Shown piece after piece: positions 40,706 to 64,000 of a DNA stretch of 64,000 bases. Origin of the DNA: Bolinopsis microptera (lineage: Eukaryota; Ctenophora; Tentaculata; Lobata; Bolinopsidae). The stretch covers positions 9,421,460-9,485,459 of the forward strand of contig NC_087083.1 of the NCBI RefSeq assembly GCF_026151205.1. The letters run 5' to 3'. The notes under the pieces were generated by a model that searched no databases, had not been told where the DNA came from, and saw nothing but the letters and a program-made list of their open reading frames with translations. Positions within the stretch are counted from its first letter, which is position 1, and the number at the start of each line of letters is the position of its first letter. Both the position numbers and the translations under genes were made by a program.

Positions 40706-41069
40706 AATAGTGGCGAGTAAATAGTGGCGAGTAAATAGTGGCGAGTAAGTAGTGATGAGTAAATAGTGGCGAGTAAGTAGTGGCGAGTAAATAGTGGCGA
40801 GTAAATAGTGGCGACTAAGTAGTGGCGAGTAAATAGTGGCGAGTAAATAGTGGCGAGTAAGTAGTGGCGAGTAAATAGTGGCGAGTAAATAGTGGCGAGT
40901 AAGTAGTGGCGAGTAAGTAGTGGCGAGTAAATACTAAATAGTGGCGAGTAAATAGTGGCGAGTAAATAGTGGCGAGTAAATTGTGGCGAGTAAATAGTGG
41001 CGAGTAAATAGTGGCGAGTAAGTAGTGGCGAGTAAATAGTGGCGAGTAAATATTGGCGAGTAAATAGTG
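40706..41069 (+). repeat. 14-bp minisatellite AGTGGCGAGTAAAT, about 26 copies
   Basis: The unit varies at one position (GTAAAT or GTAAGT). Because 14 is not a multiple of three and the unit has no stop on the minus strand, a 137-codon frame with a 14-residue period (SPLLTRHYLLATIY) runs across it. This is an artefact, not a gene. Confidence 0.95.
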
Positions 41070-41342
41070 GGTTACTCATTCTTAGAACAGTCAGCAGAGA
41101 TTACTGATGAGTAAGTACTAAGTATTGGATAACTATTAGTGTTATAATCAGATGATGGTAACGTTTGATAAAGTGATAAGTAAAACACAATCAATATCAC
41201 AGAACAATTAGTAATAATTAGTTAACAAATAAAACTAAAAAGTATCCCAGAGATAAACTCATCTAGATCAAGATACGACCCAAAATCAGAAATTGTGTCG
41301 ACTGTCGTCGCCATGGTTACCACCTAAAATCAGATCCCTGAC
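41070..41342. other. 3' flank of the cysteine-rich gene
   Basis: Sequence downstream of the minus-strand stop. I see no canonical AATAAA on that strand here. GTCGCCATGGTTACC near 41306 is a one-mismatch X-box. Confidence 0.4.
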
Positions 41343-41555
41343 TCAGATCATAGCACAATGGCTGAGACACTGGTTTGCCTTGAAGGAGTCACAATCACTG
41401 TTCTCCTTGCAAGACTGGTACCCCTTACTCCCATCATCCACGTAACACCACTCGGGACACTTCACACAGTTAGTTCCGTCTGCCATTATTATCTTCCAGA
41501 AATCGTTGAAGTTGGAGATACTTCCGCCTTCCTTGATCAGCTTCTTCATCACAAC
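41343..41555 (-). CDS. Exon 3 (terminal) of the cysteine-rich secreted protein
   Basis: 71 codons including the stop, starting in phase 0 directly after a CATGCCAG acceptor (AG at 41556-41557). It encodes an amphipathic lead (VVMKKLIKEGG) and the second cysteine module. Confidence 0.75.
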   Translation of the reverse strand, partial: VVMKKLIKEGGSISNFNDFWKIIMADGTNCVKCPEWCYVDDGSKGYQSCKENSDCDSFKANQCLSHCAMI

Positions 41556-44500
41556 CTGGCATGAGGGATCGGTAATTTAGGACTTATCACATTTGAGTGA
41601 GGGATTGGTAATTTAGGACTTATCACATTTGAGTGAGGGATTGGTAATTTAGGAATAGACTTATCACATTTGAGTGAGGGATTGGTAATTTAGGAATAGA
41701 CTTATCACATTTGAGTGAGGGATTGGTAATTTAGGAATAGACTTATCACATATTTGAGTGAGGGATTGGTAATTTAGGAATAGACTTATCACATTTGAGT
41801 GAGGGATTGGTAATTTAGGAATAGACTTATCACATTTGAGTGAGGGATCGGTAATTTAGGACTTATCACATTTGAGTGAGGGATTGGTAATTTAGGAATA
41901 GACTTATCACATTTGAGTGAGGGATTGGTAATTTAGGAATAGACTTATCACATTTGAGTGAGGGATTGGTAATTTAGGAATAGACTTATCACATTATTTG
42001 AGTGAGGGATTGGTAATTTAGGAATAGACTTATCACATTTGAGTGAGGGATTGGTAATTTAGGAATAGACTTATCACATTTGAGTGAGGGATCGGTAATT
42101 TAGGACTTATCACATTTGAGTGAGGGATTGGTAATTTAGGACTTATCACATTTGAGTGAGGGATCGGTAATTTAGGAATAGACTTATCACATTTGAGTGA
42201 GGGATTGGTAATTTAGGAATAGACTTATCACATTTGAGTGAGGGATCGGTAATTTAGGAATAGACTTATCACATTTGAGTGAGGGATTGGTAATTTAGGA
42301 CTTATCACATTTGAGTGAGGGATCGGTAATTTAGGAATAGACTTATCACATTTGAGTGAGGGATTGGTAATTTAGGAATAGACTTATCACATTTGAGTGA
42401 GGGATCGGTAATTTAGGACTTATCACATTTGAGTGAGGGATCGGTAATTTAGGAATATACTTATCACATTTGAGTGAGGGATTGGTAATTTAGGAATAGA
42501 CTTATCACATTATTTGAGTGAGGGATTGGTAATTTAGGAATAGACTTATCACATTTGAGTGAGGGATCGGTAATTTAGGAATATACTTATCACATTTGAG
42601 TGAGGGATTGGTAATTTAGGACTTATCACATTTGAGTAAGGGATCGGTAATTTAGGAATATACTTATCACATTTGAGTGAGGGATTGGTAATTTAGGAAT
42701 AGACTTATCACATTTGAGTGAGGGATTGGTAATTTAGGAATAGACTTATCACATTTGAGTGAGGGATCGGTAATTTAGGACTTATCACATTTGAGTGAGG
42801 GATTGGTAATTTAGGACTTATCACATTTGAGTGAGGGATTGGTAATTTAGGAATAGACTTATCACATTTGAGTGAGGGATCGGTAATTTAGGAATATACT
42901 TATCACATTTGAGTGAGGGATTGGTAATTTAGGAATAGACTTATCACATTTGAGTGAGGGATTGGTAATTTAGGAATAGACTTATCACATTTGAGTGAGG
43001 GATCGGTAATTTAGGACTTATCACATTTGAGTGAGGGATCGGTAATTTAGGAATATACTTATCACATTTGAGTGAGGGATTGGTAATTTAGGAATAGACT
43101 TATCACATTTGAGTGAGGGATTGGTAATTTAGGAATAGACTTATCACATTTGAGTGAGGGATCGGTAATTTAGGAATATACTTATCACATTTGAGTGAGG
43201 GATTGGTAATTTAGGAATAGACTTATCACATTTGAGTGAGGGATTGGTAATTTAGGAATAGACTTATCACATTTGAGTGAGGGATTGGTAATTTAGGAAT
43301 AGACTTATCACATTTGAGTGAGGGATCGGTAATTTAGGACTTATCACATTTGAGTGAGGGATCGGTAATTTAGGAATATACTTATCACATTTGAGTGAGG
43401 GATTGGTAATTTAGGAATAGACTTATCACATTTGAGTGAGGGATCGGTAATTTAGGACTTATCACATTTGAGTGAGGGATTGGTAATTTAGGACTTATCA
43501 CATTTGAGTGAGGGATCGGTAATTTAGGAATAGACGTATCACATTTGAGTGAGGGATTGGTAATTTAGGAATAGACTTATCACATTTGAGTGAGGGATTG
43601 GTAATTTAGGAATAGACTTATCACATTTGAGTGAGGGATCGGTAATTTAGGACTTATCACATTTTAGTGAGGGATCGGTGATTTAGGAATAGACTTATCA
43701 CATTTGAGTGAGGGATTGGTAATTTAGGAATAGACTTATCACATTTGAGTGAGGGATCGGTAATTTAGGAATATACTTATCACATTTGAGTGAGGGATCG
43801 GTAATTTAGGACTTATCACATTTGAGTGAGGGATTGGTAATTTAGGACTTATCACATTTGAGTGAGGGATCGGTAATTTAGGAATAGACTTATCACATTT
43901 GAGTGAGGGATTGGTAATTTAGGAATAGACTTATCACATTTGAGTGAGGGATTGGTAATTTAGGAATAGACTTATCACATTTGAGTGAGGGATCGGTAAT
44001 TTAGGAATAGACTTATCACATTTGAGTGAGGGATCGGTAATTTAGGAATAGACTTATCACATTTGAGTGAGGGATTGGTAATTTAGGAATAGACTTATCA
44101 CATTTGAGTGAGGGATTGGTAATTTAGGACTTATCACATTTGAGTGAGGGATCGGTAATTTAGGAATATACTTATCACATTTGAGTGAGGGATTGGTAAT
44201 TTAGGAATAGACTTATCACATTATTTGAGTGAGGGATTGGTAATTTAGGAATAGACTTATCACATTTGAGTGAGGGATCGGTAATTTAGGAATATACTTA
44301 TCACATTTGAGTGAGGGATTGGTAATTTAGGACTTATCACATTTGAGTGAGGGATCGGTAATTTAGGAATATACTTATCACATTTGAGTGAGGGATTGGT
44401 AATTTAGGAATAGACTTATCACATTTGAGTGAGGGATTGGTAATTTAGGAATAGACTTATCACATTTGAGTGAGGGATCGGTAATTTAGGACTTATCACA

Positions 44501-47500
44501 TTTGAGTGAGGGATTGGTAATTTAGGACTTATCACATTTGAGTGAGGGATTGGTAATTTAGGAATAGACTTATCACATTTGAGTGAGGGATCGGTAATTT
44601 AGGAATATACTTATCACATTTGAGTGAGGGATTGGTAATTTAGGAATAGACTTATCACATTTGAGTGAGGGATTGGTAATTTAGGAATAGACTTATCACA
44701 TTTGAGTGAGGGATCGGTAATTTAGGACTTATCACATTTGAGTGAGGGATCGGTAATTTAGGAATATACTTATCACATTTGAGTGAGGGATTGGTAATTT
44801 AGGAATAGACTTATCACATTTGAGTGAGGGATTGGTAATTTAGGAATAGACTTATCACATTTGAGTGAGGGATCGGTAATTTAGGAATATACTTATCACA
44901 TTTGAGTGAGGGATTGGTAATTTAGGAATAGACTTATCACATTTGAGTGAGGGATTGGTAATTTAGGAATAGACTTATCACATTTGAGTGAGGGATTGGT
45001 AATTTAGGAATAGACTTATCACATTTGAGTGAGGGATCGGTAATTTAGGACTTATCACATTTGAGTGAGGGATCGGTAATTTAGGAATATACTTATCACA
45101 TTTGAGTGAGGGATTGGTAATTTAGGAATAGACTTATCACATTTGAGTGAGGGATCGGTAATTTAGGACTTATCACATTTGAGTGAGGGATTGGTAATTT
45201 AGGACTTATCACATTTGAGTGAGGGATCGGTAATTTAGGAATAGACGTATCACATTTGAGTGAGGGATTGGTAATTTAGGAATAGACTTATCACATTTGA
45301 GTGAGGGATTGGTAATTTAGGAATAGACTTATCACATTTGAGTGAGGGATCGGTAATTTAGGACTTATCACATTTTAGTGAGGGATCGGTGATTTAGGAA
45401 TAGACTTATCACATTTGAGTGAGGGATTGGTAATTTAGGAATAGACTTATCACATTTGAGTGAGGGATCGGTAATTTAGGAATATACTTATCACATTTGA
45501 GTGAGGGATCGGTAATTTAGGACTTATCACATTTGAGTGAGGGATTGGTAATTTAGGACTTATCACATTTGAGTGAGGGATCGGTAATTTAGGAATAGAC
45601 TTATCACATTTGAGTGAGGGATTGGTAATTTAGGAATAGACTTATCACATTTGAGTGAGGGATTGGTAATTTAGGAATAGACTTATCACATTTGAGTGAG
45701 GGATCGGTAATTTAGGAATAGACTTATCACATTTGAGTGAGGGATTGGTAATTTAGGAATAGACTTATCACATTTGAGTGAGGGATTGGTAATTTAGGAA
45801 TAGACTTATCACATTTGAGTGAGGGATTGGTAATTTAGGAATAGACTTATCACATTTGAGTGAGGGATCGGTAATTTAGGACTTATCACATTTTAGTGAG
45901 GGATCGGTGATTTAGGAATAGACTTATCACATTTGAGTGAGGGATTGGTAATTTAGGAATAGACTTATCACATTTGAGTGAGGGATTGGTAATTTAGGAA
46001 TAGACTTATCACATTTGAGTGAGGGATTGGTAATTTAGGAATAGACTTATCACATTTGAGTGAGGGATTGGTAATTTAGGAATAGACTTATCACATTTGA
46101 GTGAGGGATCGGTAATTTAGGAATAGACTTATCACATTTGAGTGAGGGATTGGTAATTTAGGAATAGACTTATCACATTTGAGTGAGGGATTGGTAATTT
46201 AGGAATAGACTTATCACATTTGAGTGAGGGATTGGTAATTTAGGAATAGACTTATCACATTTGAGTGAGGGATTGGTAATTTAGGAATAGACTTATCACA
46301 TTTGAGTGAGGGATTGGTAATTTAGGAATAGACTTATCACATTTGAGTGAGGGATCGGTAATTTAGGAATAGACTTATCACATTTGAGTGAGGGATTGGT
46401 AATTTAGGAATAGACTTATCACATTTGAGTGAGGGATTGGTAATTTAGGAATAGACTTATCACATTTGAGTGAGGGATCGGTAATTTAGGACTTATCACA
46501 TTTGAGTGAGGGATCGGTAATTTAGGAATAGACTTATCACATTTGAGTGAGGGATTGGTAATTTAGGAATAGACTTATCACATTTGAGTGAGGGATTGGT
46601 AATTTAGGAATAGACTTATCACATTTGAGTGAGGGATCGGTAATTTAGGACTTATCACATTTGAGTGAGGGATCGGTAATTTAGGAATAGACTTATCACA
46701 TTTGAGTGAGGGATTGGTAATTTAGGAATAGACTTATCACATTTGAGTGAGGGATTGGTAATTTAGGAATAGACTTATCACATTTGAGTGAGGGATCGGT
46801 AATTTAGGACTTATCACATTTGAGTGAGGGATTGGTAATTTAGGAATAGACTTATCACATTTGAGTGAGGGATTGGTAATTTAGGAATAGACTTATCACA
46901 TTTGAGTGAGGGATCGGTAATTTAGGAATAGACTTATCACATTTGAGTGAGGGATCGGAAATTTAGGACTTATCACATTTGAGTGAGGGATCGGTAATTT
47001 AGGAATAGACTTATCACATTTGAGTGAGGGATTGGTAATTTAGGAATAGAATTATCACATTTGAGTGAGGGATTGGTAATTTAGGAATAGACTTATCACA
47101 TTTGAGTGAGGGATCGGTAATTTAGGACTTATCACATTTGAGTGAGGGATCGGTAATTTAGAAATAGACTTATCACATTTGAGTGAGGGATCGGTAATTT
47201 AGGAATAGACTTATCACATTTGAGTGAGGGATCGGTAATTTAGGAATAGACTTATCACATTTGAGTGAGGGATCGGTAATTTAGGAATAGACTTATCACA
47301 TTTGAGTGAGGGATCGGTAATTTAGGAATAGACTTATCACATTTGAGTGAGGGATCGGTAATTTAGGAATAGACTTATCACATTTGAGTGAGGGATCGGT
47401 AATTTAGGAATATACTTATCACATTTGAGTGAGGGATCGGTAATTTAGGAATATACTTATCACATTTGAGTGAGGGATCGGTAATTTAGGACTTATCACA

Positions 47501-50500
47501 TTTGAGTGAGGGATCGGTAATTTAGGAATAGACTTATCACATTTGAGTGAGGGATTGGTAATTTAGGAATAGACTTATCACATTTGAGTGAGGGATTGGT
47601 AATTTAGGAATAGACTTATCACATTTGAGTGAGGGATTGGTAATTTAGGAATAGACTTATCACATTTGAGTGAGGGATTGGTAATTTAGGAATAGACTTA
47701 TCACATTTGAGTGAGGGATTGGTAATTTAGAAATAGACTTATCACATTTGAGTGAGGGATTGGTAATTTAGGAATAGACTTATCACATTTGAGTGAGGGA
47801 TTGGTAATTTAGGAATAGACTTATCACATTTGAGTGAGGGATCGGTAATTTAGGAATAGACTTATCACATTTGAGTGAGGGATTGGTAATTTAGGAATAG
47901 ACTTATCACATTTGAGTGAGGGATCGGTAATTTAGGAATAGACTTATCACATTTGAGTGAGGGATTGGTAATTTAGGACTTATCACATTTGAGTGAGGGA
48001 TTGGTAATTTAGGACTTATCACATTTGAGTGAGGGATCGGTAATTTAGGAATAGACTTATCACATTTGAGTGAGGGATTGGTAATTTAGGAATAGACTTA
48101 TCACATTTGAGTGAGGGATTGGTAATTTAGGAATAGACTTATCACATTTGAGTGAGGGATCGGTAATTTAGGAATAGACTTATCACATTTGAGTGAGGGA
48201 TCGGTGATTTAGGAATAGACTTATCACATTTGAGTGAGGGATCGGTGATTTAGGAATAGACTTATCACATTTGAGTGAGGGATCGGTAATTTAGGAATAG
48301 ACTTATCACATTTGAGTGAGGGATTGGTAATTTAGGAATATACTTATCACATTTGAGTGAGGGATCGGTAATTTAGGAATAGACTTATCACATTTGAGTG
48401 AGGGATTGGTAATTTAGGACTTATCACATTTGAGTGAGGGATCGGTAATTTAGGAATAGACTTATCACATTTGAGTGAGGGATTGGTAATTTAGGAATAG
48501 ACTTATCACATTTGAGTGAGGGATTGGTAATTTAGGAATAGACTTATCACATTTGAGTGAGGGATCGGTAATTTAGGAATAGACTTATCACATTTGAGTG
48601 AGGGATCGGTGATTTAGGAATAGACTTATCACATTTGAGTGAGGGATCGGTGATTTAGGAATAGACTTATCACATTTGAGTGAGGGATCGGTAATTTAGG
48701 AATAGACTTATCACATTTGAGTGAGGGATTGGTAATTTAGGACTTATCACATTTGAGTGAGGGATTGGTAATTTAGGACTTATCACATTTGAGTGAGGGA
48801 TCGGTAATTTAGGAATAGACTTATCACATTTGAGTGAGGGATTGGTAATTTAGGAATAGACTTATCACATTTGAGTGAGGGATTGGTAATTTAGGAATAG
48901 ACTTATCACATTTGAGTGAGGGATCGGTAATTTAGGAATAGACTTATCACATTTGAGTGAGGGATCGGTGATTTAGGAATAGACTTATCACATTTGAGTG
49001 AGGGATTGGTAATTTAGGAATAGACTTATCACATTTGAGTGAGGGATTGGTAATTTAGAAATAGACTTATCACATTTGAGTGAGGGATTGGTAATTTAGG
49101 AATAGACTTATCACATTTGAGTGAGGGATTGGTAATTTAGGAATAGACTTATCACATTTGAGTGAGGGATCGGTAATTTAGGAATAGACTTATCACATTT
49201 GAGTGAGGGATTGGTAATTTAGGAATAGACTTATCACATTTGAGTGAGGGATCGGTAATTTAGGAATAGACTTATCACATTTGAGTGAGGGATTGGTAAT
49301 TTAGGACTTATCACATTTGAGTGAGGGATTGGTAATTTAGGAATAGACTTATCACATTTGAGTGAGGGATTGGTAATTTAGGAATAGACTTATCACATTT
49401 GAGTGAGGGATTGGTAATTTAGGAATAGACTTATCACATTTGAGTGAGGGATCGGTAATTTAGGAATAGACTTATCACATTTGAGTGAGGGATCGGTGAT
49501 TTAGGAATAGACTTATCACATTTGAGTGAGGGATCGGTGATTTAGGAATAGACTTATCACATTTGAGTGAGGGATCGGTAATTTAGGAATAGACTTATCA
49601 CATTTGAGTGAGGGATTGGTAATTTAGGACTTATCACATTTGAGTGAGGGATTGGTAATTTAGGACTTATCACATTTGAGTGAGGGATCGGTAATTTAGG
49701 AATAGACTTATCACATTTGAGTGAGGGATTGGTAATTTAGGAATAGACTTATCACATTTGAGTGAGGGATTGGTAATTTAGGAATAGACTTATCACATTT
49801 GAGTGAGGGATCGGTAATTTAGGAATAGACTTATCACATTTGAGTGAGGGATCGGTGATTTAGGAATAGACTTATCACATTTGAGTGAGGGATCGGTGAT
49901 TTAGGAATAGACTTATCACATTTGAGTGAGGGATCGGTAATTTAGGAATAGACTTATCACATTTGAGTGAGGGATTGGTAATTTAGGACTTATCACATTT
50001 GAGTGAGGGATTGGTAATTTAGGACTTATCACATTTGAGTGAGGGATCGGTAATTTAGGAATAGACTTATCACATTTGAGTGAGGGATTGGTAATTTAGG
50101 AATAGACTTATCACATTTGAGTGAGGGATCGGTAATTTAGGACTTATCACATTTGAGTGAGGGATCGGTAATTTAGGAATAGACTTATCACATTATTTAA
50201 GTGAGGGATTGGTAATTTAGGAATAGACTTATCACATTATTTAAGTGAGGGATTGGTGATTTAGGAATAGACTTATCACATTTGAGTGAGGGATCGGTAA
50301 TTTAGGAATATACTTATCACATTTGAGTGAGGGATTGGTAATTTAGGAATAGACTTATCACATTTGAGTGAGGGATCGGTAATTTAGGAATATACTTATC
50401 ACATTTGAGTGAGGGATTGGTAATTTAGGAATATTCTTATCACATTTGAGTGAGGGATTGGTAATTTAGGAATAGACTTATCACATTTGAGTGAGGGATT

Positions 50501-53500
50501 GGTGATTTAGGAATAGACTTATCACATTTGAGTGAGGGATCGGTAATTTAGGAATAGACTTATCACATTTGAGTGAGGGATCGGTGATTTAGGAATAGAC
50601 TTATCACATTTGAGTGAGGGATCGGTAATTTAGGAATATACTTATCACATTTGAGTGAGGGATTGGTAATTTAGGAATATACTTATCACATTTGAGTGAG
50701 GGATCGGTAATTTAGGACTTATCACATTTGAGTGAGGGATCGGTAATTTAGGAATAGACTTATCACATTTGAGTGAGGGATTGGTAATTTAGGAATAGAC
50801 TTATCACATTTGAGTGAGGGATTGGTAATTTAGGAATAGACTTATCACATTTGAGTGAGGGATTGGTGATTTAGGAATAGACTTATCACATTTGAGTGAG
50901 GGATTGGTAATTTAGGAATAGACTTATCACATTTGAGTGAGGGATTGGTGATTTAGGAATAGACTTATCACATTTGAGTGAGGGATTGGTAATTTAGGAC
51001 TTATCACATTTGAGTGAGGGATTGGTAATTTAGGAATAGACTTATCACATTTGAGTGAGGGATCGGTGATTTAGGAATAGACTTATCACATTTGAGTGAG
51101 GGATCGGTAATTTAGGAATAGACTTATCACATTTGAGTGAGGGATTGGTAATTTAGGAATAGACTTATCACATTTGAGTGAGGGATTGGTTATTTAGGAA
51201 TAGACTTATCACATTTGAGTGAGGGATCGGTAATTTAGGACTTATCACATTTGAGTGAGGGATCGGTAATTTAGGACTTATCACATTTGAGTGAGGGATC
51301 GGTGATTTAGGAATAGACTTATCACATTTGAGTGAGGGATTGGTGATTTAGGAATAGACTTATCACATTTGAGTGAGGGATTGGTAATTTAGGAATAGAC
51401 TTATCACATTTGAGTGAGGGATTGGTGATTTAGGAATAGACTTATCACATTTGAGTGAGGGATCGGTGATTTAGGAATAGACTTATCACATTTGAGTGAG
51501 GGATCGGTGATTTAGGAATAGACTTATCACAACCACATTAATCGCTGATCAATAGCGGAAACAAGCTTTAAAACTACATAATTAGTACCTCGCTATAACA
51601 CGGACTTCCTTATAACGCAGTTTTAAAAAACAAATTCATTTTCCCTCATACCAATAAAGCAATAAGAGTAAAGTAATAAAACTGACCTTGATAGCGCAGG
51701 CGCCGTTGCACTGAGACCAACAAAGTCTCTTGTGGCACCCGTAAGTACAGCCTGATTCAGAGTGACAGGGCTCCGCGTCACCCCAGTAACAGTTAGCTGA
51801 AAATAGAGGAATAAAGTGAAATAAAGTGAAATAAAGTGAAATAAAGTGAAATAAAGTGAAATAAAGTGAAATAAAGTGAAATAGCGAAACAGCGAAAGAA
51901 AAATAGATCAATCTGTTTGCTTGAAGCAAAACATTTTTTGAGAATTTTACAATATAATTTGGAACGTCACAGTAAAATGCTATTCAAAAAAGACCTAAGT
52001 GGGTGAATTGTGATTTTGATTGCACAATGTTCTACTGGGTAGTGAGGTATCAAACTTTTGCTGTAAAAAGGGATCAAGCTGTCTCATTTTAAAGCTTTCT
52101 TCGTTATGTAATGTCCTGATATAGCTGTTGAGCATATATTAAAGTATTGAGACAAGGAATGGAAACTGCCATGTCGGGCGCTATAAGCTATTACCACAGT
52201 TTAAAGTTTGTCTGATATCAAGACTGAGATAAAATGATTTGTAGACGGGACAATTTACGAGTAAGCCGAAAGTTATGATATTTCAGGTTTATTTTGTTTT
52301 AATACACCTACTGTATGACAAATAATTAAACAAAAATTTAAACTGGTACACGGTCAGTGCTGATGAAGACTAAAATTGATTTCAGGTTCTTGGGACATAT
52401 CCGCTCAGCATTTATTACAGTATTACCCTTAATTTAAATTACCAATAGTTAATTGATTACTTATAATTAACTCATTACTGCGAAATCTTGCACTGTATAT
52501 CTTAAAAATTGGAATGTACTTATCAAACTTTGGCATTCGCACTGCCGGCAATTTAAGAAAGCAAGCTAAAAAAGCAATTATAACTTTGCTGACCAACATT
52601 GCGTGATCTGATTATTTAATCTTTTAATAAATCGAAACTGGAATAGCATGTTTAGTGTTAAATTAACCTACAGTTTAGTTTTACCGACACCAAGACTTAT
52701 TAAGTTATAACTTAGGAATAACGCGAAAGTTTACCTGTCACCAGACATTATTAAATTAATCAATATAATATTCCGTTAAAGTATAACTGCAAACCATTTC
52801 AATTATTGAGGTTAGCGAGGCACTATATTGAGGCTCAATAAATTGATTTGCTAATCCAAATTCTTCCCGACAGTACAAGGATTATATCTTACGAACAATC
52901 ATTATCTAACATGGTCAATGGTGATTTATGTTAAAAAGTTAAAAACGCGAATGGTAACTGCATGGCGACGACACAATTGCTGCGCTGCGCGCATGGGTAA
53001 CCATGACAACGACACAATTACTGCACTGTAACCTTCAATTAAGTTTTGCTGATATCAAGAGAGTGATTCAATTAAAAAATTGGATCGAACATTTTAATTT
53101 TCTCTTTTGGTTATGTCTGGATACAGCAGCTCATGAACGACAAGCGTTTATACTTTTACAGTAGGAATTGAAACTGTTCAGTTCTAAAGATATTAACTTA
53201 TTGAGATTTTAAGATTGTTATTACATGATGCTTGCACTTAGTTACTGAAATTTGTATAGTCGGACGTGGTAGAAAATTCAGTTCTTAAACGTGACCACTT
53301 TTAGGATTAACCCGAGAGTTTGATGGTCATCCAGCTCAATAACATGACGTGATCAGGTCAACTGACTAACAAATCAAAGACTTTGTACCTGAAATGAGCT
53401 TCGTGACGGGTGTTATTTCTAGTTAATAAACCTATCAGTTTTCTGGTTTGTTGAGAAATTCAAATACACTTCAAATAGCATCTACTGATATCAGACATTT

Positions 53501-53796
53501 TCTGATTGCATTTAGAAATTAAACGATTATTTTAAAAACCGCCATGGCGGCCACCGTAAATGTTCAATGTTTTAAAAAAATTCTGATAGTTGCCTACTAT
53601 TAATAATAACCGATTTCAATAACTTACAATGGTAACTTTCTATAGTGCTTTACTAACTATATTAATCAAGTTTAATAACTTACCAACTAACCTTTACTAT
53701 TTAAAGTAACTAACCTGATCTATCTTCAGGCTGATCCTGAGCGGCTACAAAAGCCAACAAAGCCGTTAAAACAGCGACTGCAACAAACACTCTCAT
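41343..53796 (-). CDS. Small secreted cysteine-rich protein, three exons (join 41343-41555, 51687-51796, 53715-53796)
   Basis: The spliced product is 134 residues. Exon 1 encodes a clear signal peptide (MRVFVAVAVLTALLAFVAA), probably cut before Q20. Exon 2 (residues 28-64) has seven cysteines: C30, C38, C44, C48, C53, C57, C61. Exon 3 (65-134) has another seven: C94, C97, C101, C113, C119, C127, C131. The two exons share the pattern CY-x-x-D ... C-x5-C-x7/8-C-x3-C (C30-C57 and C101-C131), so they look like a duplicated module. Splice sites are GT-AG with matching phases (phase 1, then phase 0), and the joined frame is open to TGA at 41343-41345. Intron 1 is 1,918 bp; intron 2 is 10,131 bp and almost entirely satellite. 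I do not recognise the family. It is presumably an extracellular disulfide-rich protein, function unknown. Confidence 0.75.
41562..51531. repeat. Giant intronic minisatellite, 41-bp and 36-bp units, about 250 copies
   Basis: The 41-bp unit is TTTGAGTGAGGGATTGGTAA plus TTTAGGAATAGACTTATCAC plus A. A 36-bp form lacks AATAG. Recurrent variants are GATTGG/GATCGG, GTAATTT/GTGATTT, ATAGAC/ATATAC and an ATT insertion before TTTGAG. The array fills about 98% of intron 2 of the cysteine-rich gene and ends about 6 bp from the exon 3 acceptor. Each unit carries CTTATCA (TGATAAG on the gene's sense strand), a WGATAR GATA-factor consensus, and GATTGG units also carry an inverted CCAAT. Segments are duplicated at higher order (see 42420-45740). 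True copy number may be collapsed or expanded by assembly. Confidence 0.97.
42420..45740. repeat. Higher-order tandem duplication within the satellite, 1,711-bp offset
   Basis: Rare variants recur at a constant 1,711-bp offset: TATTTGAG after ACAT (42511 and 44222), GACGTATC (43533 and 45244), ATTTTAGTGA (43661 and 45372). The order of T/C and 41/36-bp variants also matches from about 42,420 to 44,030, and the copies diverge near 45,740. Confidence 0.85.
51532..51686. other. Non-satellite edge of intron 2 (5' splice side)
   Basis: The only non-repetitive part of intron 2, about 155 bp, holding the GTCAGT donor at its right end. Confidence 0.6.
51687..51796 (-). CDS. Exon 2 of the cysteine-rich secreted protein
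   Basis: 110 bp, phase 1 in and phase 0 out, flanked by TATTTTCAG and GTCAGT. It encodes the first cysteine module (NCYWGDAEPC ... CNGACAIK). Confidence 0.78.
51808..51885. repeat. 10-bp AATAAAGTGA minisatellite in intron 1
   Basis: About seven copies next to the exon 2 acceptor. On the gene's strand it reads as TTTCACTTTA repeats, i.e. a pyrimidine-rich tract leading into the splice acceptor. Confidence 0.9.
51886..53714. other. Intron 1 of the cysteine-rich gene
   Basis: AT-rich, no CACGTG, and no other gene seen. It contains a small direct repeat near 52965-53025 (GGCGACGACACAATTGCTGC / CAACGACACAATTACTGCAC). Confidence 0.6.
53715..53796 (-). CDS. Exon 1 of the cysteine-rich secreted protein (signal peptide)
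   Basis: 82 bp: 27 codons plus one base, ending TCAG before the donor GTTAGT. The ATG at 53794-53796 is the only in-frame start giving a signal peptide and lies about 50 nt downstream of the predicted transcription start. Confidence 0.8.
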
Positions 53797-53873
53797 TGTT
53801 AACAAGTTAAGACGTGAAACAGACTTTTAAAAAGTAATCGTGGTTTAAGTGAGGAACACGGCTCTACCTTGAT

Positions 53874-53881
53874 CTTATATA
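53874..53881 (-). promoter_or_regulatory. TATA box of the cysteine-rich gene
   Basis: TATATAAG on the minus strand, about 80 bp upstream of the ATG. A start near 53845-53850 would leave a 5' UTR of about 50 nt. Position and spacing fit a TATA-driven, probably highly or tissue-specifically expressed gene (inference). Confidence 0.6.
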
Positions 53882-58189: not shown

Positions 58190-58202
58190 ATGATCCAGAA
58201 AA
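58190..58202. repeat. Target-site duplication, left copy (3' side of the retroelement)
   Basis: ATGATCCAGAAAA, identical to 62055-62067. Variable-length TSDs are usual for Penelope-like elements. Confidence 0.85.
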
Positions 58203-58204
58203 GG

Positions 58205-58718
58205 TAGGAGAGTTAGAATTAACCCAAATATCAGGGACACGAATGACTACTCCAGGATTTTAAGAAACTAAACTTTCAACACTGAAAACATTCAGATTCT
58301 TGCCAAATATATTTCGATTGTAGTCATCTCCAGTGACATTGAACCTAAAAAATGTTAAAAGGTTAGTGAAACTCAAACCGTTACAAAATTAAGAATCCGA
58401 AAAAGGTAAAAAGATCATATTAAGGTTTATGGAATATAGGTAATCCAAAGGGATTGACAGTATTAAGGCCAAAAGGTCTAAGAGAATTAAGCAAATGTAT
58501 GTAGTTATTTTCTTTTACTTCAAGTGTACTGGGACTGCAATTCTCTAAAATAAAAGTTCTAAAAGTTTCATTAAAATCTGTATGTACTCCTAAACCGTGG
58601 TCAATTAAGTGAACTCCTAGGCTATACTCATCACTAGTAATATCAAATGCTCTACCATCAACGATTTCATAAAATTTGGACCTGTGTCCGTCCATCCTTT
58701 TATGCAAGCTATTAATAG
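58205..58718 (-). repeat. 3' pseudo-LTR of the PLE
   Basis: 514-bp repeat covering the last ~100 codons of the ORF plus the 3' UTR. Identical to 61525-62038. Confidence 0.93.
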
Positions 58719-61491
58719 TCCTACCCACATAGTTTTTCTTACAAATCGAACACTGTACAAGATAGATGATGTTATAGGTCTTGCAACAACCAGGGGCTGA
58801 TTTGATCTTTTTGCCATTTGATGTGATGGAGTCCTTATTCATGATCATTTTACAACACTTGCAGTTTCTTCTGTGACAGGGTTCAGTTTTACCATGTTTA
58901 GCACCTAAGGCAAGCTGTTTAGATGTAACGAGGCGAGATCTAAGCGTAGATCCCGTTTTCTTCACAAACTGAAACAGTTTATTTTTTCCTTTCGGTGCTG
59001 TGGTGGAGTTTGTGGCTTGCTGACTCTCACTTTCACTAAAACTACGAGTTCGTCTCAAGTGACCTTCGTATTTCTGGACAACATTCACCAAGTCATTGTC
59101 ACTTCCATAACTGGAGATGACTCTGATTGGTATGGCTGATAGCGGGGATTGTTCATTAGGCTCGACCGTACTCTTCCTGACTAACACTCTTTCCATGCCA
59201 AGGACTTTGTTAGCTATGTTGTCAGCCATTTTACTAGGGTATCCTGATTCATGAAACGCCCGTTTGAGAATGTTAAGCTGGGTCTCTAATCTCTCCTTTG
59301 AATTGATTATCCTCCTGAGGCGTAAACACTGGGAGTATACAATTCCTGAGAATATGTGATTGGGGTGACTACTGCTGAAATGTAGGTAGGACCTGGAGTC
59401 TGTTTCTTTTACGTATAGATCAGTTTGAAGCTCTCCTTGATGGTCGAAAGTAAACTGTACATCTAGAAAACTGACATATTCAGCTGTATTTTCTGCTTGG
59501 AATTCATCTATTTCAAGGCCATCGGGAGCGATGTTTTCGTTGACCTTCTTTATCCATGCTGAAAACTGTCTGGTAGTACCTGTAAACTGACCTGCTCCGT
59601 CGTCAATGTATCTCTTAACAGATGCTACTTGGTCCATTAGAGTGGGGTTTGAGTAGACTTCCTTGTTAAGGACATAAAACACAGCGATGTTTGCCAGTTG
59701 AACACATAGAGAACCTCCAGTAGGTACACCGTGTATTTGTTTGTACCAAGCATTCTCGAAAAAACCTATAGATGATTTTAGGCTGTGGTTCACCAAGTCA
59801 ATTAGCCAAGCTTTGAAGTTCATAGACCAGTCGGGTCTTAATTGGTCCATGGCAAATTCAAGAGCTTCAATGACAAGGGAGGGGCTGAGTGAGTCGTAAA
59901 GGCCCTTGAAGTCAAAAGTAAACGGTTTATATGTTTTCTTTTCAACTTGGGGCTTATTAGAGTTGATTTCGTCGAGCCAAATTAATGCATCTGTTGTGTC
60001 TGTAAGGAGGTCTTGGCAGAAGTCTTTTTCCAGGGGTCTTAAGTATTTCGTGGCTACAAACACATCACTCTTTTTGCTGATACCTTCTTGAAGTGCTGTA
60101 ATAAGTCTCACTGGCGGTTCAACTCCTGGGATAAGTTGGTCTTTCCTCAGTTTGTGGACTTTCAAGGAGGGGTAAAAGTAGCTCTTTCCCGGTTTATGGT
60201 GGGGAGCTGTACTTGGCCTGTTGGTCGGGCCTGTGCCTGCTTTATTTGTGTTGTCTGAAATACCCATCACAGACTTTGCTTCTTCAGGTGTAATGAAGCC
60301 TCTTGTCTTACCTTCGACCCAAGTGTCAAAAAGTTCACCGTGGAGGGTATGGAGTGGGTCGGAATCAAGTTTCTGGTATAGTTGAGGATTTTCTAGTTTC
60401 TCAAGGGTCTTATTTCTCAGTAACTTGGGATCAACAATAAGGATGCTTCCTCCTTTGTCGGCTGGTGTTATTGCTATTATTCCATCTGATACCTTCTTTT
60501 CGAGCCATTTTAATCCTTCTTGTTCGATTGGTATGAGATTTTCTTTCTTGGGTTTTTGTTTGCGTGGTCCTGATGTGTGGAGGATTTGGTCCAACTCAGA
60601 TTCCATGCTTTGGACTATATCATTGACTGCCCGATCTTCACTAGGTGTTGGGAGGTTGTAGTTCTTCTTTCGGAGTTTTGAAGGGAGTCTGAATTCAGAA
60701 CTGGTTGATTGTTGGTCATCACTAATATCAATTGGAATGTCAGTAGAGCTGTTACTTGATACACTTGACCTTCTAGAAGAGTTTATAATACTGTTGGTGG
60801 TGCGTCTCATGTCAAGTCTTGTTTGGAGAACATCTACTGTAGGAGTAGGGACAAAACCAAGACCTTTACTGAGTACTGAAACTGCTCCTAAAGGTATTTC
60901 ATGTGAATCGATGAGAACTATAACAGAACCACCATCTAATGCTTTTTTAGCCAGTTTTTCAACTTTCCTTCGTCTCTTGTTGTCTCTCCTTTTGAAGTTT
61001 GCAGATTTCTTATCACACAGATTTTTGAGTATATCCTTAGTTTTTCTAGGCCAGGCTTTCCATTTAGTAGGACACTGCATTTTGAGGAATGAAAGCTTAT
61101 TGTCAAAATGTGATTGGAGGGATTTGAAATCCTTTCCAGGGAGTGGTTCAAGGTTAAAATGGGATTTGCTCACTTTCTCTGACAAGATCCTGACGATGTT
61201 GACTTTTCTAGTGATTGCAAGTCCAAGCATTTTACTTTCGAGGTGTGAAAAATAAAGTAACCTCTGAGGATGGGAATTCAGCGCCTGTGAACCCTTAATT
61301 CTAAGGGAAACAGGGGGCCTTTTGAGAGTAGTGCAATTTCTAAGGAAGGTGAGTCTCATTTTCTCAATCTGGAGTTTTCCAAGGTCTGAATATTCCCCGT
61401 AGTGCTTACTTAGTAAACTAGGCGATTTCGTGGGAGGCACACTGGGTTGGGATATACCAGTGTCATCAGAAATATTCATACTTGACATCAT
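58420..61491 (-). CDS. PLE polyprotein: reverse transcriptase plus GIY-YIG endonuclease
   Basis: The ORF is open from a GTG at 61560 (1,046 codons). The first ATG is at 61491 (codon 24), which I take as the start. In 1,046-residue numbering there is a basic, Ser-rich N-terminal region (1-340); an ADKGG motif (367-371) typical of PLE RTs; RT motif A with D550 (FTFDFKGLYDSL); motif B at 611-618 (GVPTGGSL); catalytic YIDD at 651-654; FLDV at 699-702; and a thumb-region HFSSSHPNHIFSG block (727-739). A Cys/His knuckle (CHRRNCKCC, 895-903) precedes a C-terminal GIY-YIG endonuclease (IIYLVQC 931-937, YVGRT 944-948, R955/R956, E1017) ending in the family's LNSLRPFGLN signature. All catalytic residues are present, so it is probably functional. 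It should nick target DNA and prime reverse transcription. The unusual LYDSL motif A and the long N-terminus suggest a divergent PLE lineage. Confidence 0.93.
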   Translation of the reverse strand: MMSSMNISDDTGISQPSVPPTKSPSLLSKHYGEYSDLGKLQIEKMRLTFLRNCTTLKRPPVSLRIKGSQALNSHPQRLLYFSHLESKMLGLAITRKVNIVRILSEKVSKSHFNLEPLPGKDFKSLQSHFDNKLSFLKMQCPTKWKAWPRKTKDILKNLCDKKSANFKRRDNKRRRKVEKLAKKALDGGSVIVLIDSHEIPLGAVSVLSKGLGFVPTPTVDVLQTRLDMRRTTNSIINSSRRSSVSSNSSTDIPIDISDDQQSTSSEFRLPSKLRKKNYNLPTPSEDRAVNDIVQSMESELDQILHTSGPRKQKPKKENLIPIEQEGLKWLEKKVSDGIIAITPADKGGSILIVDPKLLRNKTLEKLENPQLYQKLDSDPLHTLHGELFDTWVEGKTRGFITPEEAKSVMGISDNTNKAGTGPTNRPSTAPHHKPGKSYFYPSLKVHKLRKDQLIPGVEPPVRLITALQEGISKKSDVFVATKYLRPLEKDFCQDLLTDTTDALIWLDEINSNKPQVEKKTYKPFTFDFKGLYDSLSPSLVIEALEFAMDQLRPDWSMNFKAWLIDLVNHSLKSSIGFFENAWYKQIHGVPTGGSLCVQLANIAVFYVLNKEVYSNPTLMDQVASVKRYIDDGAGQFTGTTRQFSAWIKKVNENIAPDGLEIDEFQAENTAEYVSFLDVQFTFDHQGELQTDLYVKETDSRSYLHFSSSHPNHIFSGIVYSQCLRLRRIINSKERLETQLNILKRAFHESGYPSKMADNIANKVLGMERVLVRKSTVEPNEQSPLSAIPIRVISSYGSDNDLVNVVQKYEGHLRRTRSFSESESQQATNSTTAPKGKNKLFQFVKKTGSTLRSRLVTSKQLALGAKHGKTEPCHRRNCKCCKMIMNKDSITSNGKKIKSAPGCCKTYNIIYLVQCSICKKNYVGRTINSLHKRMDGHRSKFYEIVDGRAFDITSDEYSLGVHLIDHGLGVHTDFNETFRTFILENCSPSTLEVKENNYIHLLNSLRPFGLNTVNPFGLPIFHKP

Positions 61492-61524
61492 AAGGTTCCA
61501 TGTAGTTCCGCGAGGGATTAAAGA

Positions 61525-62038
61525 TAGGAGAGTTAGAATTAACCCAAATATCAGGGACACGAATGACTACTCCAGGATTTTAAGAAACTAAACTTTCAAC
61601 ACTGAAAACATTCAGATTCTTGCCAAATATATTTCGATTGTAGTCATCTCCAGTGACATTGAACCTAAAAAATGTTAAAAGGTTAGTGAAACTCAAACCG
61701 TTACAAAATTAAGAATCCGAAAAAGGTAAAAAGATCATATTAAGGTTTATGGAATATAGGTAATCCAAAGGGATTGACAGTATTAAGGCCAAAAGGTCTA
61801 AGAGAATTAAGCAAATGTATGTAGTTATTTTCTTTTACTTCAAGTGTACTGGGACTGCAATTCTCTAAAATAAAAGTTCTAAAAGTTTCATTAAAATCTG
61901 TATGTACTCCTAAACCGTGGTCAATTAAGTGAACTCCTAGGCTATACTCATCACTAGTAATATCAAATGCTCTACCATCAACGATTTCATAAAATTTGGA
62001 CCTGTGTCCGTCCATCCTTTTATGCAAGCTATTAATAG
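61525..62038 (-). repeat. 5' pseudo-LTR of the PLE
   Basis: Identical copy of 58205-58718 lying upstream of the ORF. Since only about 34 bp separate it from the ORF's ATG, any promoter for the element probably lies within this repeat. Confidence 0.92.
61740..62027 (-). pseudogene. C-terminal GIY-YIG fragment of the PLE protein (in the 5' pseudo-LTR)
   Basis: Encodes the last 95 residues of the PLE endonuclease domain, identical to the full ORF's C-terminus. It lacks the IIYLV and YVGRT motifs, so it is not a functional endonuclease and only forms part of the pseudo-LTR. Confidence 0.9.
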
Positions 62039-62067: not shown

Positions 62068-63070
62068 ATATTTATGCTGTCTGTCTGTCAATGTCATGTA
62101 TAACATTAATTCTAAGACAAATATGAGCGAGTAAACGGGTGGGTTTGTCCATTTTATAAGTTTTGGCTTTATTAATATTAAGCCCCGATCCCAGATTGCA
62201 ACATTAATTGCGGCCGTGTTACGAAAATATTCGCCGCGCTAACAAAATATTCGCCATGTTATGATTTATTTGCAATGCTACGCGCGATGATGCAAATATT
62301 TCATCTTTTCATAAAGCTATAAAGCTATAAAAGTATTAAGCTGTATTTTCGGTTGTGACTGATATTTTTTCTTTTTTTCTGATGCGATAAAAACTGACTA
62401 TCAAAGAATACTACTAATTTTATCCTTGTTACCACGGGCTTTCTAGTCAATATAATAATTCGAAAATTATTCTGTCTGTCTGTACGACCGCCCACGTGCA
62501 AATTAGGTAAAAAGCAAAAGGTTGCATAATAACCATGGTAACGGTGTTAAAACTCGCACGTGCACGTCCAAAGATTTTATGTCGCTCGCTTTTCCCATTC
62601 ATTCATGGCTTACATGATAATTGTAATAATGAATAAGTTTTGGTTTATGGCATCAATCACACTCGTAAAAATCTCTTGGATTACTTTCAGTTTCGGGCCG
62701 ATACCCAGAACTTTAAAATAAAGGCGGTAGTTAGTGTCCAATAAAGCAATAAGCATCATTTTTAAAAACGGGATTCCAAAATTAATAATTTTAGATATAC
62801 ACAAATTTTTAAATGTTGAATTATGTCCGAATATGCACGTATTTCTTGTGATAAACGTATTTGCAAAGTATGCAAGTACGCCCTGAGCAAGTTGCCAAAG
62901 TACATAAACATAGCTTGTAATCACTTTTTTCATGGAACATTTTATGTTTCTAATCGAACAAACATGACTACCAAGATAAGTTTAATAACGTATGATTATT
63001 TCTAAGTGAAAACTGGCCCATGATTACTAAGGAATCACATATTACGTTAACGCTGCAACCCCATTTATTG
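62068..63070. other. Spacer between the PLE and the (CCCTGA)n array
   Basis: AT-rich. It contains a small direct repeat (AAAATATTCGCC twice near 62225-62265), CACGTG at 62493 and 62557, and opposite-strand frames at 62610-62933 (-) and 62823-63005 (+). The plus frame has a C-x2-C and a later C/H pattern (KRICKVCKYA ... ACNHFFH) faintly like C-terminal knuckles of some transposon proteins, but this is too weak to call. Confidence 0.4.
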
Positions 63071-64000
63071 ACCCTGACCCTGACCCTGACCCTGACCCTG
63101 ACCCTGACCCTGACCCTGACCCTGACCCTGACCCTGACCCTGACCCTGACCCTGACCCTGACCCTGACCCTGACCCTGACCCTGACCCTGACCCTGACCC
63201 TGACCCTGACCCTGACCCTGACCCTGACCCTGACCCTGACCCTGACCCTGACCCTGACCCTGACCCTGACCCTGACCCTGACCCTGACCCTGACCCTGAC
63301 CCTGACCCTGACCCTGACCCTGACCCTGACCCTGACCCTGACCCTGACCCTGACCCTGACCCTGACCCTGACCCTGACCCTGACCCTGACCCTGACCCTG
63401 ACCCTGACCCTGACCCTGACCCTGACCCTGACCCTGACCCTGACCCTGACCCTGACCCTGACCCTGACCCTGACCCTGACCCTGACCCTGACCCTGACCC
63501 TGACCCTGACCCTGACCCTGACCCTGACCCTGACCCTGACCCTGACCCTGACCCTGACCCTGACCCTGACCCTGACCCTGACCCTGACCCTGACCCTGAC
63601 CCTGACCCTGACCCTGACCCTGACCCTGACCCTGACCCTGACCCTGACCCTGACCCTGACCCTGACCCTGACCCTGACCCTGACCCTGACCCTGACCCTG
63701 ACCCTGACCCTGACCCTGACCCTGACCCTGACCCTGACCCTGACCCTGACCCTGACCCTGACCCTGACCCTGACCCTGACCCTGACCCTGACCCTGACCC
63801 TGACCCTGACCCTGACCCTGACCCTGACCCTGACCCTGACCCTGACCCTGACCCTGACCCTGACCCTGACCCTGACCCTGACCCTGACCCTGACCCTGAC
63901 CCTGACCCTGACCCTGACCCTGACCCTGACCCTGACCCTGACCCTGACCCTGACCCTGACCCTGACCCTGACCCTGACCCTGACCCTGACCCTGACCCTG
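63071..64000. repeat. (CCCTGA)n / (TCAGGG)n hexamer array, 155 perfect copies to window end
   Basis: An uninterrupted 930-bp array of a one-base variant of the metazoan telomere hexamer (TTAGGG to TCAGGG). The C-rich strand is on plus, which is the orientation of a left chromosome end, yet it lies at the right edge of the window. It is therefore an internal or satellite array, or a misoriented scaffold joint. No TTAGGG repeats are mixed in. Confidence 0.97.

What the first reader, a model, noticed from the sequence alone, without database searches (positions are those of the whole stretch)
41343..53796. A small secreted cysteine-rich gene split across a 10-kb satellite
Three short exons, none longer than 213 bp, assemble into one signal-peptide protein with consistent GT-AG sites and phases and a TATA box. 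Intron 2 is 10.1 kb and about 98% minisatellite, so the gene would be missed by ORF-length scans. Direct evidence: splice motifs, signal peptide, cysteine spacing. Inference: transcription across the array.
Basis: partly seen in the sequence, partly recalled or inferred. Interest (0 to 1): 0.75.

Follow-up and report, generated by a model that had tools for sequence, protein, structure and literature searches.

The report
Secreted cysteine-rich gene with satellite-filled intron
In what is most likely a comb-jelly genome, a small secreted, cysteine-rich protein gene has its two halves separated by ten kilobases of one short repeat; sister copies elsewhere in the genome show that the halves belong together and to a protein family that I did not find in the public domain libraries searched.

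Summary
Exons 53796-53715, 51796-51687 and 41555-41343 (minus strand) join through GT-AG introns (phases 1 and 0) into a 134-residue protein; 9,951 of the 10,131 bases of intron 2 are one 41-bp minisatellite. Paralogs give independent support. The own-genome search lists 29 places, three of them this gene. In the 22 sources scanned, each of 25 module-1 (exon 2) matches is followed by module 2 (exon 3) on the same strand; in five, one open frame holds both. The nearest paralog, L009, repeats the three-exon plan. One member is the C-terminal domain of an apparently intact papain-type protease. No Pfam, NCBIfam or PDB family matched above cut-off. The satellite seems confined to this intron (211 matches genome-wide, 211 in the window) and runs into the 3' splice site. 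The intron is not at the family's usual position. The genome fits a ctenophore, probably Bolinopsis microptera (inference). No transcript data were available: splicing across the array and function stay inferred. A real gene of a seemingly undescribed family; satellite-filled introns as such have precedent.

The parts
53715..53796 (-). Exon 1, coding part: start codon, signal peptide MRVFVAVAVLTALLAFVAA and QDQPEDRS; ends in phase 1
   Evidence: nearest paralog L009 has an equivalent exon
53874..53881 (-). TATA-like element TATATAAG
   Evidence: read; motif only
51797..53714 (-). Intron 1, 1,918 bases, phase 1, CAG|GTTAGT .. TTTTCAG|C
51687..51796 (-). Exon 2: cysteine module 1 (NCYWGDAEPCHSESGCTYGCHKRLCWSQCNG) plus Cys 7 (AC) and AIK
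41556..51686 (-). Intron 2, 10,131 bases, phase 0, AAG|GTCAGT .. ATGCCAG|G
41581..51531 (-). 41-bp minisatellite, about 248 copies (mainly 41- and 36-bp units); by equal counts (211 and 211 at up to 2 mismatches) found only here in the genome
41556..41580 (-). Last, partial satellite copy, running into the 3' splice site; holds the branch-point-like CTAAAT and a pyrimidine-rich stretch
   Evidence: read; branch-point role is inference
41343..41555 (-). Exon 3: 29 residues before Cys 8 (VVMKK..DGTN) not found in the paralogs, then cysteine module 2 (CVKCPEWCYV..ENSDC..QCLSHCAMI) and stop

Best explanation
It is a working protein-coding gene of a secreted two-module cysteine-rich family. The pre-mRNA probably starts near 53,850 on the minus strand, runs about 12.5 kb through two introns, and is spliced to a short mRNA encoding a signal peptide followed by two disulfide-rich modules with 14 cysteines (probably seven disulfides). 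One disulfide probably links Cys 7 (exon 2) to Cys 9 (exon 3), which would tie both exons into one fold. The protein is exported and probably acts outside the cell as a small binding or accessory module, for example in gut, mucus or tentacle gland secretion. The minisatellite is most likely a passive passenger that grew by slippage and unequal exchange from the 3' end of intron 2. Shown: coordinates, frames, homology, module pairing, confinement of the satellite at the stringency searched. Inferred: transcription, splicing, secretion, disulfides, function.
For: Splice model. Paralogs of both exons. Module 1 followed by module 2 on the same strand in 25 of 25 cases in the 22 sources scanned, five of them in one open frame. 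Phase-1 intron 1 after a hydrophobic exon in the best model of the nine copies (of 15 tried, the window gene included) that gave a usable one. Invariant C, C, GC, CW..C, C, EWC, C, C, C in 12 aligned members. Constraint against L009: 39 of 77 differences at third codon positions over 72 codons, dN 0.33, dS saturated. Cys 7 and Cys 9 both present in 11 and both absent in 6 of 17 rows (read by eye). Fusion to an apparently intact papain-type zymogen in L015 and a decayed second fusion in L042.
Against: No RNA evidence was available. Intron 2 is not at the family's usual place: 11 of the 19 intron-bearing pairs have a phase-1 intron inside the Gly codon of CNG, this gene has phase 0 further on. 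The 29 residues at the start of exon 3 match nothing in the fetched loci above chance-like scores, so the exact acceptor is less sure than the gene; an in-frame downstream acceptor scores lower. No canonical poly(A) signal nearby. Several paralogs are recent duplicates of each other (L010/L011/L016, L013/L014, L020/L021), so the 25 pairs are not independent. Function is a guess from secretion, cysteines and the protease fusion.
Confidence: 0.8

Rival explanations
1. Exons 1-2 and exon 3 were once one gene but the array now blocks productive splicing, so the locus is a recent pseudogene with intact-looking exons.
For: The intron is very large against the inter-module introns of paralogs (109 to 3,209 bases in the best models); no canonical poly(A) signal; the start of exon 3 is private. 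Broken copies exist in the family (L025 minus strand with a TGA between the modules; L042).
Against: All 14 cysteines, the reading frame and the four splice motifs are intact; differences to L009 favour third positions. Introns with megabases of satellite are transcribed in Drosophila kl-3 and kl-5 (PMC6508621, abstract read).
Confidence: 0.12
2. Exon 2 is spliced to a different, undetected module 2, and exon 3 to a different module 1.
For: Intron position and phase differ from most paralogs.
Against: In the window the only module 1 and module 2 matches at E 0.01 are these two, on one strand and in order; frames agree at the junction; both Cys 7 and Cys 9 are present, as the pair pattern asks.
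Confidence: 0.04
3. The satellite is a functional part of the gene: its repeated branch-point-like and pyrimidine tracts or its length tune splicing or timing of expression.
For: The last unit forms the acceptor region; the array appears confined to this intron; the common unit types repeat CCTAAAT and a CCCTC tract.
Against: Nothing shows conservation of or selection on the array; a 1,396-base exact match at a shift of 1,711 bases looks like neutral unequal exchange or an assembly effect.
Confidence: 0.1
4. The protein is a prey-directed or antimicrobial peptide rather than a digestive or mucus accessory protein.
For: Small, secreted, cysteine-rich, multi-copy, divergent between paralogs. Candidate tentacle and colloblast genes of a ctenophore are enriched for signal peptides (PMC6278862, passages).
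Against: The full target has no Pfam match at E up to 10, and 12 members show only three sub-cut-off hits, none a toxin domain (late nodulin 0.019, PHZA_PHZB 0.14, POLO box 0.17, one member each). The protease fusion fits a digestive or accessory role at least as well.
Confidence: 0.3

Closest known systems
Satellite-filled introns of Drosophila kl-3 and kl-5 (intron gigantism; PMC6508621, abstract read)
   Same: Exons kept apart by an intron that is almost wholly tandem repeat; gene expected to be transcribed through it.
   Different: Here 10 kb rather than megabases, a 41-bp unit confined to one intron, and a short secreted protein; no expression data.
Papain-type proteases with a C-terminal cysteine-rich extension, such as the granulin domain of plant proteases (recalled, no call)
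   Same: L015 joins an I29-Peptidase_C1 zymogen to a C-terminal cysteine-rich domain.
   Different: The domain here is the two-module 14-Cys domain; Pfam at E up to 1 reported only protease families for L015. In the sources read, L015 and the decayed L042 are the only copies where I found a protease (not searched for systematically).
Lineage-restricted secreted genes of ctenophore tentacles and colloblasts (PMC6278862, passages)
   Same: Signal peptide, ctenophore genome, no known domain.
   Different: No expression link was tested and no gene of that paper was compared with this one.

Membership tests
Two-module 14-Cys family defined here in this genome | Module 1 followed by module 2 on one strand | tested here: met
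Two-module 14-Cys family defined here in this genome | 14 cysteines, with Cys 7 and Cys 9 both present | tested here: met
   rows without Cys 7 lack Cys 9 too (6 of 17). Counts of other rows run from 10 to 16, partly because some rows are incomplete
Two-module 14-Cys family defined here in this genome | Hydrophobic N-terminus, in many copies followed by a phase-1 intron | tested here: met
   phase 1 in 9 usable models of 15 copies tried (hydrophobicity only, no SignalP)
Two-module 14-Cys family defined here in this genome | Phase-1 intron in the Gly codon of CNG (11 of 19 intron-bearing pairs) | tested here: not met
   phase 0, 17 bases downstream; common but not universal in the family, so taken as an intron change inside it
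WAP, granulin, ShK, EGF and other catalogued cysteine-rich domains | Match to a Pfam profile | tested here: not met
   target, E up to 10: none; 12 members, E up to 1: three weak unrelated names, none of these domains
Phage or bacterial families | Match in PHROGs or NCBIfam | tested here: not met
   one hit, phrog_25003, E 0.11, 27 residues; none
Known solved structures | Sequence or profile match | tested here: not met
   none at E up to 10
Known solved structures | Fold similarity | tested here: inconclusive
   exon 3 alone folded without alignment, mean pLDDT 51.8; no fold search made
Genes with satellite-filled introns | Intron mostly tandem repeat | tested here: met
   9,951 of 10,131 bases
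Genes with satellite-filled introns | Transcribed and spliced across the repeat | not testable with these tools
   no RNA data
Ctenophore (Bolinopsis microptera) genome | 13 chromosome-scale sequences, about 265 Mb | tested here: met
   C1-C13 of 15.2-26.2 Mb sum to 258.07 of 264.65 Mb (97.5%; C14-C18 are 0.1-0.2 Mb); literature 265 Mb, 13, 97.23%. The literature table gives 346 scaffolds, here 232 contigs.
Ctenophore (Bolinopsis microptera) genome | Glutamate receptor closest to ctenophore structures | tested here: inconclusive
   two of 32 receptor places tried: L030 is closest to ML032222a, E 3.4e-28, then 4zdm 3.8e-21, then GluA2-type chains 1.7e-16; but L026 matched GluA2 and delta-1 chains best, with no ML032222a among the 60 rows shown
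Ctenophore (Bolinopsis microptera) genome | Mnemiopsis CPEB1c primer within 2 mismatches | tested here: not met
   0 hits; may be an exon border or divergence between the species

The most novel reading that the evidence does not exclude
Intron 2 is a young intron at a new place: the family's usual phase-1 intron was lost, a new one arose 17 bases downstream together with a private stretch of 29 residues, and its acceptor region was then multiplied about 248-fold, so that a single-locus minisatellite was born from a 3' splice site. If so, this is a datable case of intron birth followed by satellite birth, in an undescribed protein domain family that was also joined to a cathepsin-type protease.
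Probability: 0.2. Interest if true: 0.7.

Novelty: new variant of a known kind. Interest (0 to 1): 0.5.

Why it matters
Gene finders that rely on ORF length or short introns are likely to miss such genes, and the family (25 module pairs in the sources read) matched no Pfam or NCBIfam entry although one member is part of a papain-type protease. The copy in the window lets one ask how a satellite arises next to a splice site and whether splicing tolerates it, because intron-free, short-intron and satellite-intron copies of the same two modules sit in one genome.

Tried and rejected
Structure: exon 3 alone gave mean pLDDT 51.8 and was not used. L009's intron 2 and the other fetched loci hold nothing like the start of exon 3 above chance-like scores (best 37 against 152 for itself), and L009 shares no DNA likeness with the window gene outside exon 3, nor do the other loci with the satellite or with the intron ends. 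A family tree of 17 rows is poorly resolved (1 of 14 inner branches starred), so the order of intron loss and gain could not be settled; L009 is nearest to the window gene by path and identity but that fork is unresolved. Splice-silence of the array (494 GT and 245 AG, best donor 3.4 and best acceptor -5.9 against 8.4 and 3.6 for the real sites) was rejected as evidence because one unit holds only about two GT and one AG. A bacterial promoter scan of the upstream region found nothing and says nothing here. Literature on ctenophores: searches 'ctenophore, cysteine-rich, secreted, colloblast', 'ctenophore, lineage-specific, secreted, cysteine, signal peptide, Mnemiopsis', 'ctenophore, cathepsin, cysteine-rich, domain', 'ctenophore, venom, toxin, colloblast' and 'ctenophore, Bolinopsis, tandem repeats, intron' (no paper) showed no description of this family in their listings (titles and starts of abstracts); most subscription papers are not held.

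Rows dropped before counts: in the tree the window row leaves out 31 residues between Cys 7 and the Asn before Cys 8; in the dN count these, plus three residues of module 1 of the window copy and two of L009 that do not align, are left out. In one search, fifteen copies were tried: nine gave a usable model (window, L009, L012, L013a, L013b, L017, L020, L021, L024), L022, L023, L018a and L011 gave none, and the models printed for L010 (phase 2) and L018b (phase 1) were discarded because a signal peptide lies in the same exon as module 1; L011 and L018a are of that kind too. Places listed but not fetched, so outside the 25-of-25 count: C53:40225, C6:1193093, C6:1200914, C6:16596839, C9:3726317, C10:2222811, C10:2237895. 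The two profiles used were built from 12 of the sequences that they then found; L043's module 1 and the module 2 of L016 and L022 are partial matches. The tree leaves out L011, L014a, L014b, L016, L021, L025 minus strand, L043 and L045.
Full report
What was checked. The three exons are at the stated places on the minus strand. Joined, they give 82 + 110 + 213 nt and a protein of 134 residues. Intron 1 is 1,918 bases and phase 1, intron 2 is 10,131 bases and phase 0. Tandem Repeats Finder gives a 41-bp array from 41581 to 51531, 248 copies, 93% matches. There is a TATATAAG about 80 bases before the ATG.

Is it a gene? A six-frame search of the window's own genome with the 134 residues lists 29 places at E up to 10: three are this gene's own exons, the rest lie on nine other contigs. 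Exon 3 matches C10:7315439 (56%, 4.5e-12), and 1.4 kb upstream on the same strand exon 2 matches C10:7314065 (51%, 6.2e-8). I read 17 regions around the hits and later four more. With profiles of the two modules, made from the 12-member alignment, the 22 sources scanned (L009-L025, L042-L045, window) hold 25 module-1 and 26 module-2 matches; each of the 25 module-1 matches is followed by module 2 on the same strand. The extra module 2 is in L042, a decayed copy. Limits: the profiles were trained on 12 of these sequences, the regions were picked by hits, three matches are partial, and some loci are recent duplicates; but order and strand were not built in. Six pairs have no intron between the modules. 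In five of them (L015, L019, L024, L025 plus strand, and L043, whose module 1 is only partly in the frame) one uninterrupted frame holds both halves; the sixth (L025 minus strand) has a TGA between them. This is the strongest evidence that exons 2 and 3 of the window belong to one protein.

The nearest paralog, L009, repeats the plan: exon 1 MKLAIAVCFVILVAA.., donor GCTT|GTAAGT, phase 1, acceptor ATTTCAG|AC, module 1, an intron of about 1.2 kb, module 2. In one search a search free to choose any phase put intron 1 in phase 1 in the nine copies, of 15 tried, that gave a usable model. Over 72 aligned codons the window gene and L009 differ at 23 first, 15 second and 39 third positions; dN is 0.33 and dS is saturated, which fits selection on the protein.

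What the protein is. Twelve aligned members share invariant C, C, GC, CW..C, C, EWC, C, C and C. Among 17 rows, Cys 7 (just after CNG) and Cys 9 (just before EWC) are both present in 11 and both absent in 6 (my reading of the linkers printed), the absences falling in L010 and in the L013/L019/L025/L044 group, which suggests that they bond. In the window gene Cys 7 is in exon 2 and Cys 9 in exon 3. No Pfam family matches the full target at E up to 10; of 12 members at E up to 1 there are three weak names, one member each (late nodulin 0.019, PHZA_PHZB 0.14, POLO box 0.17). NCBIfam gives none, PHROGs one weak short hit (0.11); no solved structure matches by sequence or profile. In L015 the two modules are the last 75 residues of a frame of 433 codons (first Met at codon 15) with an I29 propeptide (2.9e-11) and a Peptidase_C1 domain (7e-51); the CGSCWAF, GHAV and NSWG segments around the catalytic residues are present (sequence; their role recalled). 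L042 holds remnants of the same protease upstream of the same domain, with stops. So the domain is used both alone and on a protease. A role in extracellular binding, targeting or regulation is the most likely common denominator; that is inference.

The intron. In 11 of 19 intron-bearing pairs the best model puts the inter-module intron in phase 1 inside the Gly codon of CNG (L010, L012, L017, L018a, L018b, L020, L021, L022, L023, L044, L045). L011 and L016 read G|GC there and gave other phase-1 models. L009 gave a weak phase-2 model, L013a, L013b, L014a and L014b phase 2, and the window gene phase 0, 17 bases further on, with the residues that begin exon 3 elsewhere (G-A-C) lying in exon 2. 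The 29 residues after the acceptor match no fetched locus. The simplest reading is that the usual intron was lost and a later one lies at a new place, but the family tree is too weak to order the events, and a shift of splice sites cannot be excluded.

The satellite. The unit with up to 2 mismatches has 211 matches in the whole genome, all forward (only the first places are listed, the count is whole), and 211 in the window, so at that stringency it is confined to this window, where the places shown all lie in the array. Spacings are mainly 41 or 36 bases (187 and 48 of 244), with 22 unit types. A 1,396-base stretch recurs exactly 1,711 bases on (from the window counts), as unequal exchange or an assembly effect would give. 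The last copy, CTAAATTACCGATCCCTCA, is followed directly by TGCCAG and exon 3: the array reaches the 3' splice site and its unit supplies the branch-point-like and pyrimidine-rich stretch. None of 494 GT and 245 AG in the array scores like a splice site, against a mean of 3.7 donors (score 6 or more) and 75 acceptors (1 or more) in 50 base shuffles, but because one unit has only about two GT and one AG this is little more than a single draw.

Organism. Thirteen contigs of 15.2-26.2 Mb make up 258.07 of 264.65 Mb; C14 to C18 are 0.2 Mb or less. Bolinopsis microptera is reported with 265 Mb and 13 chromosomes (PMC11797021, passages) holding 97.23% of the assembly (PMC10232365, passages). One glutamate receptor of this genome (L030) is closest to ML032222a (3.4e-28), ahead of GluA2-type chains (1.7e-16); ML identifiers are those of Mnemiopsis leidyi (PMC10284499, passages). 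Against: another receptor (L026) is closest to GluA2 and delta-1 chains, a Mnemiopsis primer had no hit within two mismatches, and the number of sequences differs (346 against 232). I hold ctenophore at about 0.95 and B. microptera at about 0.85 (inference).

Known or new. Introns of satellite DNA that are transcribed are known (PMC6508621, abstract). Secreted genes without known domains are known from ctenophore tentacles (PMC6278862, passages). In the listings of the five ctenophore searches named under Tried and rejected I saw no description of this domain family. The family, its cathepsin fusion and a single-locus satellite that reaches the acceptor are the new parts.

Noticed in passing
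58420-61566, with repeats at 58200-58718 and 61520-62038: A 1,048-residue open frame on the minus strand that looks like a Penelope-like retroelement (recalled; only a weak GIY-YIG Pfam hit, E 0.035), with 519-bp direct repeats 99.8% identical overlapping its two ends, which suggests a recent insertion.
   Followed up: partly
63069-64000: (TGACCC)n, about 155 perfect copies reaching the end of the window, next to the retroelement.
   Followed up: no
whole window: CACGTG occurs 87 times against a mean of 8.8 (largest 16) in 200 base shuffles, and never in the 41-bp array; it recurs in several minisatellite units. Ctenophore loop-anchor proteins bind a GC-rich motif with two CpGs (PMC12221973, passages); whether this is related was not tested.
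   Followed up: partly
L015:2289-3587 (minus) and L042:2953-4394 (minus): One open and one decayed papain-type protease with the same two-module cysteine-rich C-terminus.
   Followed up: partly
L013 and L014 (C4:7840500-7845500 and C4:7895500-7904000): Two gene pairs of the family on opposite strands about 55 kb apart, each with a (VR)n-coding simple repeat beside one copy.
   Followed up: no
40706-41070: A 14-bp minisatellite (about 27 copies) some 270 bases after the stop codon of the gene; no AATAAA-type signal before or within it.
   Followed up: partly
L025 minus strand (C11:12229957-12230199): A two-module copy with a TGA between the modules, next to an intact copy on the other strand.
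   Followed up: no
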